From: Limnohabitans sp. 2KL-17
GTDB lineage: Bacteria; Pseudomonadota; Gammaproteobacteria; Burkholderiales; Burkholderiaceae_C
Direction: 5' to 3'
NCBI RefSeq assembly: GCF_003063415.1
Contig: NZ_NESK01000013.1
Coordinates: 1-64,000 of the forward strand
DNA length: 64,000 bases
Shown: one piece after another, positions 1-4,552 of the stretch
Position numbering within the stretch: the stretch's first letter is position 1
How the letters are laid out: each line of letters opens with the position of its first letter
Program-made: the position numbers and the translations under genes
The notes under the pieces: generated by a model
Databases searched by the model: none
The model's input: only the letters and a program-made list of their open reading frames with translations
What the model was told of the DNA's origin: nothing

Positions 1-110
1 CCATACTCCTGGGCGATTTGATTGATGGTCTTCATCCCGCCGAGCGCCTCCAGCCCCACCTTGGCCTTGAACTCCGGCGGATGAACTCTGCGTTTTTTTG
101 ATTCAGTCAT
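1..110 (-). CDS. IS3-family transposase OrfA, N-terminal part (cut by window edge)
   Basis: Reading leftwards from an ATG at 108-110, the product begins MTESKKRRVHPPEFKAKVGL and continues to the window edge with a helix-turn-helix-like stretch ending IAQEYG. This is the usual opening of the small DNA-binding OrfA of IS3-family elements; only about 36 residues are present. The IS end should lie between 121 and about 175, next to the stop codon of the reverse transcriptase gene. The family is assigned from the N-terminal pattern only; the subgroup cannot be fixed from this fragment. Confidence 0.8.
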   Translation of the reverse strand, partial: MTESKKRRVHPPEFKAKVGLEALGGMKTINQIAQEY

Positions 111-120
111 TGGTAACCCG

Positions 121-173
121 TTTTTTTTGGATAGTGTCCCACTTAAACACCTGTCCCAAATTCGGGGTCCACT
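121..173. repeat. Probable terminal region of the IS3-family element
   Basis: This non-coding strip separates the transposase start from the reverse transcriptase stop. Read on the minus strand it begins near TGGACCCCGAATTTGGGACA and then GTGGGACAC, which resembles IS3/IS150-type ends rich in a GGACCCC...GGGACA pattern. The partner end is outside the window, so the exact terminus and any target duplication cannot be confirmed. Confidence 0.5.
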
Positions 174-1412
174 TCAAACTGCCGGAACGGTCAGCGAATC
201 GTAGTTAGGAATGTATCTGTGACTAGTCTTGTCAGTTCGCTTTGCTTCAAAGTATGCTTTCAGCGCTCGCTTAGGGTTAGGTGGCATAGGGATCTTGAAT
301 CTGTCGAACAACTGCCGGACTGTGTTGTCGATCCGGTAGAGCACAGCAGGATCGTTGATTTGCGAATAGTAGAAGACCCATCCAAAACGCGGTCCCTTGT
401 AGATGCATCCCGTTAGCTTCAGATTTAGATTCCACCTAAAGCGGGCACGAGCAGCATTGCGCTCAGACGTAGTCACAGCGTTTCTGAACCGGTGCCGATA
501 TTCAACGAACGTCTCGACTAACGAGCTTTCGAACGAAATCACGTTGGTCGACTTAACCGAGATGCGATCAGGCAGTACAGAGTACCCCAGATATTTAAAT
601 CCATCAGCGGTCAATCCAGTATGGCTTTTTGACCCCGGCTCATTGATGGGATGTGGCTGAAGCTTGGACGCGCGCAAAATCCCCAATACTTCTTTGCATA
701 GCGGACTTGGGTCAACGTCAGTGAGGATGATGATGTCATCCACATACCTGATGTAAAAAGGTGCGAGCGACCGGATCCGCGCGTCAACATCCAGCATGAA
801 GATCTCAGCCAGTACGTTTGATATTGACAGGCCCTGGGGCACTCCCTTTGTTCTGGGCTGGGCGCTGCTCGCTGCGTTTTCGGCAACAGTTGGATTCCTG
901 AGCGCGCAGGTAATGAGCTTACGAAACGCTGGCAATCGCGCTCGCCGCCCAGTGCGAGACATCACAATGGAATGGTTAAGGGACGGATAGAAGTCGCGAA
1001 GATCGATCCGTATGAAGTGCGGGTATATGCCCGAGTCAACTGCGGCTTTAAGCGCATCAATCTTCACCTGCGGAAGGTCAGGCCTCGCTTCTGGATAGAC
1101 CTCAAACAGGTAATCGCAAAGAGCACGAAGCGTCACACGGTCGCGAATGGTAGGAATGGCGAGTTGCCTTGGAGCTTTGTCCGCGCCCCTCAAAACTAGT
1201 TTCTCTTTGTACTTTGTGTACTTGTAAGTCCCTGCCAGCGCTTTCTTCGAAATCAGGGCGATCTCAGAGGAAAGACGCGAGACAAAGTTTCGCGCATCAA
1301 CACGGTCCAAGCCGACCGCCCGGCTGTCGGATAGTCGCTTCGAGTATGTGTTTGCTAACCCGGTAGGGGAAAACTTGTCTCGAAACGCTCTGGCCGCACT
1401 TATCTTTGCCAT
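174..1412 (-). CDS. Reverse transcriptase, probable defence-associated (DRT/UG-type) paired with a SLATT protein
   Basis: A 412-residue RNA-directed DNA polymerase. Visible motifs in order: a GLDRV N-terminal motif (34-38), an IPTIRDRV block (86-93), motif A with Asp137 in IRIDLRDFYPSLNH (133-146), motif B GVPQGLSISNVLAEIF (190-205), the catalytic YVDD (223-226) and FKYLGYS (272-278). There is no group II intron maturase X/thumb plus endonuclease layout and no retron-style msr/msd seen beside it. The ATG lies inside the 3' end of the SLATT-like gene (13 bp overlap), so the two are translationally coupled. This fits reverse transcriptases of anti-phage systems that act with a membrane effector. 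The C-terminus (SHRYIPNYDS, then a few residues) looks complete, although the stop codon touches the IS end. Molecular class (DRT number) is not certain. Confidence 0.85.
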   Translation of the reverse strand: MAKISAARAFRDKFSPTGLANTYSKRLSDSRAVGLDRVDARNFVSRLSSEIALISKKALAGTYKYTKYKEKLVLRGADKAPRQLAIPTIRDRVTLRALCDYLFEVYPEARPDLPQVKIDALKAAVDSGIYPHFIRIDLRDFYPSLNHSIVMSRTGRRARLPAFRKLITCALRNPTVAENAASSAQPRTKGVPQGLSISNVLAEIFMLDVDARIRSLAPFYIRYVDDIIILTDVDPSPLCKEVLGILRASKLQPHPINEPGSKSHTGLTADGFKYLGYSVLPDRISVKSTNVISFESSLVETFVEYRHRFRNAVTTSERNAARARFRWNLNLKLTGCIYKGPRFGWVFYYSQINDPAVLYRIDNTVRQLFDRFKIPMPPNPKRALKAYFEAKRTDKTSHRYIPNYDSLTVPAV

Positions 1413-1945
1413 CCGAATGCGAGGCCGAGAGGAAGGAGGTACACAACACCAATGCCCGCAACACGAAGCGACAAATGCAGTCCGAAAAGGAAGTAGTCCG
1501 CCACTGACGGCTTTCTCGACGTAAGCCCAGTGCTGTTGAGAACGCGAAAATGGCGATAGTCATAGGAAGTGTGGTTTTCACATTCTTGGAGCAGCTTCGC
1601 GTATCGTGGCGGCTTTTCAGTTGCGGGGACGGTGCCAGCCTTCAGCTCATCGAACAGGGTCTTTAACGCGAGATGATTGGCGCGCATCATAAGCGCCCGA
1701 CCTTTGAAATCGCGGCTCGCAACTAGCATCGATATTGCAAGTAGGCCGACGGATAGGACGGCCATCGAGATGTCCGTATCTGGACCGAGGAACTTCTCAT
1801 GCCTGACCGCAACAATAGAGCCGGCTGTGCTCAGGACCGCATACCAGATAAGCAACACCTGCGTGTGCAGGTCGTTGTTGCGCAGACGCACTTCCGCGGC
1901 GATACGGGCTTTGTAGGTAAACCAGATGTCGTCAAATTGGGGCAT
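1400..1945 (-). CDS. SLATT-like multi-pass membrane protein, predicted effector of the RT system
   Basis: A 181-residue protein with an amphipathic N-terminal helix followed by two closely spaced hydrophobic segments (about 30-48 and 58-76), a charged cytoplasmic helix region with KLLQECENHTSYDY near 119-132, and a hydrophobic C-terminal segment (about 150-177). This layout matches the SLATT superfamily (two-TM pore-forming effectors described with SMODS/SLOG systems), of which one family is known to neighbour reverse transcriptases. It is the first gene of the RT operon and overlaps it by 13 bp. No clear Shine-Dalgarno sequence precedes its ATG. The expected role is a pore or membrane-disrupting toxin triggered by the RT product; that role is inferred from family and context. 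Confidence 0.7.
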   Translation of the reverse strand: MPQFDDIWFTYKARIAAEVRLRNNDLHTQVLLIWYAVLSTAGSIVAVRHEKFLGPDTDISMAVLSVGLLAISMLVASRDFKGRALMMRANHLALKTLFDELKAGTVPATEKPPRYAKLLQECENHTSYDYRHFRVLNSTGLTSRKPSVADYFLFGLHLSLRVAGIGVVYLLPLGLAFGWQR

Positions 1946-1964
1946 GGCAAAGGTGGAGGGATGA

Positions 1965-2100
1965 GTATTGAGAAGTAAGTAATTCGCCCTTGTTCAGGAC
2001 CAGGGACATCGTCCCAACAGGTTGCCCCGTTAGTCATTAGATTCGCCGTTTGCACAGCCTCGTGCCCGCCACTCCAGGGTGAATACTAACTTATTCTAAA
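1965..2100 (-). ncRNA. Candidate structured non-coding RNA of the RT-SLATT system
   Basis: AAGTAAGTAATTC (1973-1985) is nearly the reverse complement of GAATACTAACTT (2081-2092): 11 pairs with one mismatch and one bulge, forming a closing stem around a 95-base interior. The interior has two perfect hairpins, GGGACATCGTCCC (2003-2015) and GCACAGCCTCGTGC (2052-2065). As RNA on the minus strand the 3' arm reads with a tandem UUAC-UUAC pattern. It lies 28 bases before the SLATT ATG, on the same strand as the operon. Many defence reverse transcriptases copy an adjacent structured RNA, so this is the obvious candidate. The folding is read by eye; transcription and conservation are unknown, and it could also be a structured leader. 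Confidence 0.4.
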
Positions 2101-2429
2101 TGCGATCACCAAACACGAAAGCGTATGCAGATTTACACTTGAACTTACCCCGACCTCGCCGGCCCCCGAGAGCGTCCAAATAGAAATCCGCCGGCGAACT
2201 GCGGGCGTTGTTTCATAGCACGTCGGAGACGTTTCTCAAGCTCACGAACTAGGATGTCCTCCCGGCCCCTTCGCGTCGTTCGCCTTTCTGCAGGTCTTGG
2301 TGGCTCAATGACCGCATTGGAGCCGAGACCGTGAACTGCGCTTCCAGCGGCGAGCGACCGCTCCCGCTGCAAACCAGTCCATTTGACTGTCGCCTTGGGC
2401 GCGCAGAAAGACCAAAGCGGGATTTTTAG

Positions 2430-2569
2430 AAAAGTGGCAACTTCAGTGCCGCAAAATCGGAAAAGTAGCAACTTCAGAGACGCATTGATAGCAAGTGCTG
2501 TGACGTAAATTTCAGATCGCCTATAAAAATCAATAACTTAGAAAACTATGGGTAGCAACTTCAATGACG
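2430..2569. repeat. Three direct copies of a GTAGCAACTTCA-type repeat (IS-end-like)
   Basis: AAAAGTGGCAACTTCAG (2430-2446) and AAAAGTAGCAACTTCAG (2461-2477) are exactly 31 bases apart and differ at one position. A third copy, GTAGCAACTTCAATGACG, lies at 2552-2569. Multiple short terminal repeats of this kind occur at the ends of IS21-family elements, which would suit a decayed element. No istA/istB coding sequence is visible nearby, so the assignment is tentative. Confidence 0.5.
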
Positions 2570-2790: not shown

Positions 2791-3408
2791 TTAGCCACGT
2801 TTAAGGTGCGGCTTGAGCTCGACTTCTACGGCCTGAACTGCCGCCTGAAATTTTTTCGATAGCTCGTTGTCTTGGGCCTGCGGAGACGCAAACACTTCTG
2901 ATTTAATCTTCACCCCGAACTCTCTGTCTGACTTGAAGTGCTCCCCGCCTGAATGTTCATTGTCAATATATGCCTCAGTTGCGGCCCAGAGCACTCGCAA
3001 AAGTCTTCTCAGCTCATCGGTCTTCGTACGAACTGATGTTCCCCAAAGCGCTTCGACCTCTAGTGTTTGGGTGTCGAACTCCTGCAAAGCGGCGTAGACC
3101 GGCTCCCAGCGCGCGGAGAAAACGTGACCGTACGCGTTTGCACGTGTTCTTGTGCGGTCCGTCGATCCGTCGTCACTCTGACCGTCTGGAAATTCACTGG
3201 GACGAATCAAAGGGCTGCGATAGATCTGAATCTCATCCCTCAGCTTGTACGTCGCCTTGGCAAGTTTCCTGGCGACCTCGAAGTCAGCAGTCCCGCGCAA
3301 CTGTCGACTCCAAGTCTTCAGACCAAGCACAGCTACAACCGCAGTAACTATGCCTGCAGTAGCAAGGACAACGTCCTTGATAGCAGTAACGATTTCAAGA
3401 GTTGACAT
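2791..3408 (-). CDS. Hypothetical protein with one N-terminal membrane segment
   Basis: A 205-residue protein. Residues about 8-29 form one hydrophobic segment (ATAGIVTAVVAVLGL); the rest is predicted soluble, helical and charged, with a patch of Asp/Thr/Arg near 75-90 and Trp-rich helices around 95-145. Such one-TM plus helical-domain proteins are common in accessory and defence islands, but I do not recognise a named family. The neighbours on the same strand are the HEPN-like gene upstream and the RT system downstream, both separated by several hundred bases, so it is probably its own transcription unit. Function unknown. Confidence 0.65.
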   Translation of the reverse strand: MSTLEIVTAIKDVVLATAGIVTAVVAVLGLKTWSRQLRGTADFEVARKLAKATYKLRDEIQIYRSPLIRPSEFPDGQSDDGSTDRTRTRANAYGHVFSARWEPVYAALQEFDTQTLEVEALWGTSVRTKTDELRRLLRVLWAATEAYIDNEHSGGEHFKSDREFGVKIKSEVFASPQAQDNELSKKFQAAVQAVEVELKPHLKRG

Positions 3409-3820: not shown

Positions 3821-4552
3821 TCAGCTCAGAGAGGTCTCAACGAAGGAAATCTCGTCAGTTATCAAGGCCAGGATTTCCGCGTCATACATCTGAAGCGGCT
3901 TACCCACCATACTTGAATCCAAAGTTCGGTGCCGCCAGGTAACCGACGATATTCCTTTCTTCTCAAGTTCGGGCGGCCAATTGATCAGCTCCCCGCGTTT
4001 ATGTGACACAGTGTTCCTTAGAATCCGAGCAAACTGATACCAAGTTAAGCCGTGAAGTTTGTCCGTCTGGGCAGATTCACGGCAGTACAGGCCGAGCACC
4101 TCAAAGCTCTCAGCAACAACTGATCGTCGCAGCATCTTTTGGAATTCATCGACCATGGTTGGCTGATCTTTACGCAGCGATGTTGTACTGCCAAAAACAG
4201 GTCCAAGGTCCGCCGTGAACGCCACATTCGGCGACCGTACTTCATGAATCATGGTGCCGACAAGTTTCCAATCAATGGAATCTGAAAAACCAAGAAGAAT
4301 GTTTCCCAGAAGCAGATTGCCGTAGAGGTGGTGTAGAGCGTTTAGAAGCTCGTTTTTGGTCATTGGCGTAAATGCAGGCGATAGGTCATTGAAAGTTATG
4401 GTAGCTGCTGTTTGCGCCCTTGAAATAAGTAAGTCACCGCGAAGGGCGGGTAATGGCCGATCGCTGTAATTCAGCTTACGACGAGCAATGACTGTAACCG
4501 CTGCAAAGGAGTCAATTGAACTGCCGTGTTCAATGCTCAGCATGACTGGCAT
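3821..4552 (-). CDS. Hypothetical protein with HEPN-like RN-x3-H motif
   Basis: A 243-residue protein of no recognised named family. The segment WYQFARILRNTVSHKRG contains R179-N180-x3-H184, the arrangement used by HEPN-domain ribonucleases, within a helical C-terminal half. The surrounding residues (about 130-240) are mostly helical, and the N-terminal 60 residues look different. HEPN proteins are frequent toxins or effectors in defence islands, and this gene sits upstream of the RT-SLATT unit on the same strand. The same RN-x3-H pattern also occurs in non-nuclease helical proteins, so catalytic activity is only a possibility. Two ATGs (4552 and 4543) could serve as start. Confidence 0.65.
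   Translation of the reverse strand: MPVMLSIEHGSSIDSFAAVTVIARRKLNYSDRPLPALRGDLLISRAQTAATITFNDLSPAFTPMTKNELLNALHHLYGNLLLGNILLGFSDSIDWKLVGTMIHEVRSPNVAFTADLGPVFGSTTSLRKDQPTMVDEFQKMLRRSVVAESFEVLGLYCRESAQTDKLHGLTWYQFARILRNTVSHKRGELINWPPELEKKGISSVTWRHRTLDSSMVGKPLQMYDAEILALITDEISFVETSLS

What the first reader, a model, noticed from the sequence alone, without database searches (positions are those of the whole stretch)
1965..2100. Structured candidate ncRNA upstream of the SLATT-RT operon
AAGTAAGTAATTC (1973-1985) and GAATACTAACTT (2081-2092) form a closing stem (11 pairs, one mismatch, one bulge) around two perfect hairpins (2003-2015, 2052-2065). On the RNA strand the 3' arm reads UUACUUACUU, a short tandem repeat near a stem, which could be a template for repeat synthesis by the neighbouring RT. 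Position and strand match the operon.
Basis: partly seen in the sequence, partly recalled or inferred. Interest (0 to 1): 0.8.

Follow-up and report, generated by a model that had tools for sequence, protein, structure and literature searches.

The report
DRT10 template RNA, polymerase gene interrupted
The sequence is the guide RNA of a known bacterial anti-virus system (DRT10) whose enzyme copies a short RNA template over and over, much as telomerase does; in this genome the enzyme gene appears to have been cut in two by a jumping element, so this copy is probably dead.

Summary
The neighbouring genes are a UG17 reverse transcriptase (RT, 174-1412, -) and a SLATT_5 protein (1400-1945, -), the pair of DRT10 (PMC12632851). 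The RNA core is 1955-2075 (-), 121 nt: closing stem, four hairpins, unpaired template loop. A model from six loci finds it in four further DRT10 loci; 20 of 32 pairs change on both sides among ten sequences. UUACUUACUU (1973-1982) lies unpaired 3 nt after the last hairpin, where DRT10 templates lie; relatives keep a repeat there with other letters (modest statistics). Predicted product: (GTAA)n DNA. New: an IS3-like element cuts off the last ~42 codons of the RT, ending in the serine expected to prime synthesis; they lie on contig C101 beside the other element end, with a 3-bp duplication. New member of a known kind, probably inactive here.

The parts
1955..2075 (-). DRT10 ncRNA core (121 nt): closing stem, four hairpins, template loop
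   Evidence: covariance model R1, 120.8 bits (the window was one of the six sequences used to build R1); only match in the own genome; covariation
2065..2075 (-). closing stem P1, 5' arm GGAGUGGCGGG
   Evidence: 11 bp without mismatch in L004, L005, L069; one mismatch in L003, two in the window; L006 has 10 bp of different sequence
1955..1965 (-). closing stem P1, 3' arm CUCAUCCCUCC
   Evidence: 7 of 11 pairs with changes on both sides among ten sequences
2045..2058 (-). hairpin 1 (GCUGU-GCAA-ACGGC)
2016..2031 (-). hairpin 2 (AACGGG-GCAA-CCUGUU)
   Evidence: 4 of 5 pairs change on both sides among ten sequences
1986..2000 (-). hairpin 4 (GUCCU-GAACA-AGGGC), in the position of SL5 of Eco3DRT10, just upstream of the template
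   Evidence: position as described in PMC12632851
1973..1982 (-). predicted template UUACUUACUU (A-B-A' with no B, unit UUAC); predicted cDNA (GTAA)n
   Evidence: unpaired in the conserved fold; a repeat with other letters is kept in relatives
   Evidence: -10-like hexamer scores peak 6-7 nt upstream of P1 over ten loci; a strict promoter scan finds none
1400..1945 (-). SLATT_5 protein, 181 aa, reading frame intact
174..1412 (-). UG17 (DRT10) RT, interrupted: reads to ...LTVPAV and then stops at the insertion sequence; YVDD present
   Evidence: PADLOC RT_UG17 433.9 bits but profile positions 2-385 of 429 only; alignments
1..173 (.). end of an IS3-like insertion sequence; contig C17 starts inside it
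   Evidence: end sequence TGAAGTGGACCCC (RT strand), its mirror image on contig C101, 3-bp GTT duplication; eight matches in the own genome, this one included

Best explanation
The locus descends from a DRT10 (UG17) anti-phage system of ncRNA, SLATT protein and RT. The RNA starts near 2075 and ends near 1955. Its closing stem and four hairpins present an unpaired template loop to the RT. In an intact relative, the RT would start DNA synthesis on its own C-terminal serine, copy UUAC up to a boundary set by hairpin 4, release, re-anneal on the downstream repeat and copy again, giving long (GTAA)n single-stranded DNA that acts together with the SLATT membrane protein. In this genome an IS3-like element has cut off the last ~42 codons of the RT, including that serine, so the RNA and SLATT are still encoded but the polymerase is probably dead. 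Shown here by computation: family of the genes, RNA structure, position of the repeat, the two halves of the RT. Inferred from the published E. coli systems: priming, repeat synthesis, defence.
For: RT_UG17 433.9 bits (next family 108.1) and RTasSLATT/SLATT_5. Published DRT10: RT, SLATT and an ncRNA upstream of SLATT with a large stem-loop carrying four smaller ones, template in the loop just after the last one, A-B-A' repeat, priming at a C-terminal Ser or Tyr of the RT (PMC12632851). Same architecture here: folds; 96.3% of cells paired against 45-59% for slid controls; in ten sequences 20 of 32 pairs with changes on both sides, reached by 0 of 500 shuffles. Model R1 finds four loci not used to build it (L061 E 2.5e-11, L036 5.2e-8, L062 1.9e-5, L051 0.012), each just upstream of SLATT, and nothing at E <= 1 in eight loci of more weakly matching RTs. 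A repeat starts 2-3 nt after the last hairpin in 9 of 10 loops. Interruption. dN/dS against L003 is 0.08-0.15 for SLATT and RT body, and the cut-off piece gives dN 0.060, dS 0.768, so selection held until recently.
Against: R1 finds nothing in 8 of 17 other UG17 loci (L037, L050, L052, L063, L064, L065, L066, L070/L080), so the RNA model covers only part of UG17. The repeat statistics are modest: summed over 7 distinct templates P = 0.007 if the repeat must start within 4 nt of the hairpin (a limit I set after seeing the loops), 0.04 without; for the window's loop alone P is 0.235 (repeats not overlapping) or 0.021 (overlap allowed); L051 shows no clear pattern. The window's own closing stem has two mismatched pairs and its fold is not exceptional. 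A strict sigma-70 scan found no promoter in any of the five loci scanned. Contigs C17 and C101 are not joined in the assembly; the interruption is inferred from both ends.
Confidence: 0.9

Rival explanations
1. One reading: a closing stem AAGUUAGUAUUC/GAAUUACUUACUU with the repeat in its 3' arm.
For: The stem can form in the window, 11 of 11 pairs, and appears in the window's minimum-energy fold when the flank is included.
Against: L069, L005, L004, L006 keep 5, 3, 5, 4 of 11 pairs; chance level in shuffles, P 0.115; its 5' arm lies at a likely -10 box upstream of the RNA start; a different closing stem covaries.
Confidence: 0.04
2. A cis-acting leader that regulates SLATT translation rather than a template RNA.
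For: The RNA core ends 9 nt before the SLATT start codon, and by eye no Shine-Dalgarno-like sequence stands there in the window, L003-L006 or L069.
Against: The E. coli DRT10 ncRNAs sit in the same place, bind the RT and template cDNA (PMC12632851); a repeat with changing letters is kept in the loop.
Confidence: 0.05
3. The interrupted system still works, for instance because the cut-off C-terminal piece is supplied separately or another residue primes.
For: The C-terminal reading frame on C101 is open to its Ser and stop; SLATT and template loop are intact.
Against: Changing Ser456 alone abolished defence and severely impaired cDNA synthesis in Eco3DRT10 (PMC12632851); two more of the 18 UG17 loci read here also have a broken RT (L036 by a TAG, L070/L080 by an insert), so loss is not rare.
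Confidence: 0.05

Closest known systems
DRT10 (UG17) of E. coli, Eco3DRT10 (PMC12632851)
   Same: UG17 RT plus SLATT; ncRNA directly upstream of SLATT; one large stem-loop with four smaller ones; template loop just after the last of them; A-B-A' repeat; RT of 454 aa ending in Ser in L003, L004, L005 and L061 (456 aa, Ser456 in Eco3).
   Different: Predicted unit 4 nt with no B segment (9 nt, A 4 and B 5, in Eco3); core 121 nt against a 137-nt transcript; RT interrupted in this genome.
DRT9 and DRT3a ncRNA-templated RTs
   Same: Class 2 UG RTs that copy a short loop template repeatedly into repetitive DNA (DRT9 as told in PMC12632851; DRT3a in passages of PMC13174585).
   Different: DRT9 copies a poly-U tract, DRT3a an ACACAC motif and works with a second RT, DRT3b. 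The window RT scores Drt3a 108.1 and Drt9 45.4 bits against 433.9 for UG17. I did not compare the RNAs directly.
Telomerase RNA and TERT
   Same: Short RNA template of templating plus alignment parts, boundary set by a structure, repeat addition by re-annealing (a comparison made by PMC12632851).
   Different: A likeness in working only: DRT10 primes on protein, makes free repeats and serves defence. The RT profile matches solved TERT chains weakly (E 6.4e-7); its best solved match is a group II intron RT (E 1.2e-28).

Membership tests
DRT10 (UG17), by descent | UG17 reverse transcriptase | tested here: met
   PADLOC RT_UG17 433.9 bits, E 1.5e-130; next family Drt3a 108.1
DRT10 (UG17), by descent | adjacent SLATT protein in the same operon | tested here: met
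   RTasSLATT 157.7 bits, SLATT_5 82.3 bits, reading frame overlapping the RT start
DRT10 (UG17), by descent | structured ncRNA directly upstream of SLATT: one large stem-loop with four smaller ones | tested here: met
   shape compared with the published description, not with its covariance model
DRT10 (UG17), by descent | template loop after the last stem-loop with an A-B-A' repeat | tested here: met
   UUACUUACUU 3 nt after hairpin 4; a repeat is kept in relatives, P 0.007 with a start limit, 0.04 without; window loop alone 0.235 or 0.021, so met but weakly in statistics
working DRT10 system | catalytic YVDD in the RT | tested here: met
   present in the window RT
working DRT10 system | C-terminal priming Ser or Tyr joined to the RT | tested here: not met
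   cut off by the insertion sequence; the separated piece on C101 ends in Ser. I therefore do not claim a working system in this genome
working DRT10 system | RT binds the ncRNA, makes tandem-repeat cDNA, gives phage defence | not testable with these tools
   needs RIP-seq, miniprep-seq and plaque assays

The most novel reading that the evidence does not exclude
A DRT10 branch in the bacterial family of Polaromonas makes telomere-like DNA of very short unit, (GTAA)n, from a 10-nt template with no spacer between the two repeats, and this genome keeps SLATT and the template RNA after losing the polymerase, which would show that SLATT is tolerated without its cDNA. Whether a natural template of this kind is among the published ones I could not check (tables not held).
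Probability: 0.35. Interest if true: 0.45.

Novelty: new member of a known kind. Interest (0 to 1): 0.33.

Why it matters
It places a template RNA spotted by eye inside a recently described system, corrects its structure, and predicts exact DNA products for natural variants: GTAA (L003, L005, L069), TGTTA (L004) and TAAGTA (L006) repeats. One RNA scaffold with templates of period 4, 5 and 6 is a natural series for testing how the repeat unit is set. The interrupted copy is a natural loss of the polymerase with SLATT retained, which bears on the published suggestion that the cDNA holds SLATT in check. The RNA had no Rfam match here.

Tried and rejected
Rfam: no match at gathering score over the window or up to E 1 over 1900-2200. 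Strict promoter scans of the window, L006, L005, L069 and L061: none found; the terminator-like hits in L005 and L069 are hairpin 4 itself. E. coli genomes with L051 DNA, distant mode: no match. Phage records with the window RT and the L051 RT: no match. Viral contigs: with the window RT eight loci of distant RTs, 21-30% identical; with the L051 RT none confirmed. Window's genus: 1 of 90 genomes has a UG17 RT at E 1e-60 or better, the window's own. Structure prediction was not obtained.

Rows dropped before counts: the A-B-A' sum uses 7 of 10 loops because L003, L069 and L005 share the window's template. Alignment A2 held a weak second L006 match (E 0.17); pairs were counted instead on A6, made with a limit of E 0.02. 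A6 is fitted to the model's structure and leans towards it. The loop ends were set by eye from the folds. The second Vibrio nigripulchritudo plasmid (H3) was not fetched.

Full report
What the neighbours are. The window is the first 64 kb of contig G000:C17, which is 102,047 bases long. On the minus strand, 174-1412 is a reverse transcriptase (RT) that matches PADLOC RT_UG17 with 433.9 bits, far above the next family (Drt3a, 108.1), and 1400-1945 is a SLATT_5/RTasSLATT protein. A 2025 preprint (PMC12632851; I read the held text in all eight parts, references and legends included; its supplements were not open to me) names UG17 systems DRT10 and shows for three E. coli systems that an ncRNA upstream of SLATT is bound by the RT and that its loop templates tandem-repeat DNA. 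For Eco3DRT10 it reports a 137-nt RNA with a large stem-loop carrying four smaller ones, an A-B-A' pattern in the template loop just after the last stem-loop, and priming by the C-terminal Ser456; Eco1DRT10 likely primes on a C-terminal Tyr. An earlier survey noted SLATT_5 beside 82% of UG17 RTs (PMC8934634, passages only). From 2025 on, one paper of the searched library holds both 'DRT10' and 'SLATT'.

What the RNA is. Each of the five relatives folds on its own into a closing stem around hairpins (z -3.95 for L003, -2.55 L069, -3.84 L005, -4.15 L004, -4.13 L006); the window does so weakly (z -1.36), its closing stem carrying two mismatched pairs. In the six-sequence alignment 96.3% of cells pair, against 45-59% when partners are slid by 1-3 columns, and five pairs change on both sides.

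Independent loci. A covariance model R1 from these six was run on 26 sources. It found all six and, in loci not used to build it, L061 (E 2.5e-11), L036 (5.2e-8), L062 (1.9e-5) and L051 (0.012), each just upstream of SLATT. It found nothing at E <= 1 in eight loci of RTs that match the UG17 profile weakly (1e-41 to 1e-48, not identified further). One more weak hit, in L006 (E 0.17), is probably chance. In the own genome the only match is 1955-2075. Of 17 other UG17 loci, nine match (five of them in the model) and eight do not: L037, L050, L052, L063, L064, L065, L066 and L070/L080. On the ten matched sequences, 20 of 32 pairs have changes on both sides, with 51 such cells against 11.5 in shuffles; none of 500 shuffles reaches it. 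That alignment is fitted to the structure, so one search is the more cautious figure.

AAGUUAGUAUUC with GAAUUACUUACUU pairs 11 of 11 in the window and 10 of 11 in L003, but 5, 3, 5 and 4 of 11 in L069, L005, L004 and L006, and is at chance level in shuffles (P 0.115). Its 5' arm contains TAGTAT, 7 nt upstream of the closing stem. Over ten loci a -10-like hexamer, by a weighting of my own, stands out 6-7 nt upstream of the stem among 60 positions (z 2.94 and 2.77 by exact gap, 3.19 with one base of play), so this arm is more likely promoter than RNA. Strict promoter scans of five loci found nothing.

The template. UUACUUACUU (1973-1982) is unpaired in the conserved fold, 3 nt after hairpin 4. 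In relatives the letters differ but a repeat stays near the hairpin: UUACUUACUU again in L003, L005 and L069; UAACAUAAC in L004; UACUUAUACUU in L006; UUACCUUAC in L036; UCA...UCA in L061; UUAA...UUAA in L062; nothing clear in L051. Over seven distinct templates the summed repeat length exceeds shuffled loops with P 0.007 if the repeat must start within 4 nt of the hairpin, a limit set after I had seen the loops, and 0.04 without it. For the window's loop alone P is 0.235, or 0.021 if the repeats may overlap. The window and L003 RNAs differ at 5 of 121 positions, none in the template loop, while synonymous divergence of their genes is 0.56-0.85. The predicted product is (GTAA)n.

The interruption. 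The window RT matches only positions 2-385 of the 429-position profile and ends ...LTVPAV, where L003 goes on for 42 residues. Of 16 relatives whose C-terminus I read, 13 end in Ser and three in GY or YG. In the window the frame stops in a sequence that begins TGAAGTGGACCCC. The missing C-terminus (84% identical to L003 over 45 matched residues, open, ending in Ser) lies at G000:C101:135-269, directly after GGGGTCCACTTCA. The bases GTT stand on both sides of the element and once in the uninterrupted L003 site. The element end has eight matches in the genome, this one included, six of them at contig starts, which explains the assembly break; a related stretch in plasmids (74% over 111 bases) is annotated as an IS3-like transposase. 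dN/dS against L003 is 0.08-0.10 for SLATT and 0.10-0.15 for the RT body, and the cut-off piece gives dN 0.060 and dS 0.768, which suggests a recent event. Of 18 UG17 loci read, three have a broken RT: the window, L036 (one TAG) and L070/L080 (an insert after about residue 52).

Mechanism and confidence. The best-supported account is a DRT10 locus with a telomerase-like template of unit UUAC, probably inactive here because the priming end is lost. Family, structure and interruption rest on computation; repeat synthesis and defence rest on the published E. coli systems. The preprint suggests that the cDNA may hold SLATT in check. A cell that keeps SLATT but not a whole RT speaks, weakly, against SLATT being toxic on its own, if SLATT is expressed there at all, which was not tested.

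Verdict.

Noticed in passing
window 2113-2220; L067 281-391; L003 1732-1805, 5042-5085, 7194-7240: Both outer flanks of the window's DRT10 locus carry a repeat (74% over 111 bp, opposite orientation relative to the operon), part of which also matches the tRNA-Gly region beside L003's DRT10; L003 has an intact tRNA-Gly and two further partial matches. Suggests a tRNA-Gly-associated mobile island.
   Followed up: partly
window 2434-2569: Three copies of an 18-nt direct repeat (reference GTAGCAACTTCAGAGACG) upstream of the ncRNA, with related stretches on contig C101 downstream of the RT remnant.
   Followed up: partly
L080 3056-5486 (G1652): A second DRT10 RT split by an insert, after about residue 52, in a genome of another family of the same class.
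   Followed up: partly
L036 1501-2868: DRT10 RT with one in-frame TAG at about residue 121, otherwise complete to a terminal Ser.
   Followed up: partly
L037/L081, L050/L082, L052/L083: UG17-profile RTs without a SLATT match nearby at E 1e-3 (three SLATT proteins as queries) and with no R1 match; L037 lies directly after a gene that by eye looks like a restriction-system specificity subunit. Possibly a distinct UG17 branch.
   Followed up: partly
window 2791-3408 and 3821-4552, minus strand: Two further open reading frames upstream of the ncRNA, with no PADLOC or Pfam match at E 1e-3.
   Followed up: no
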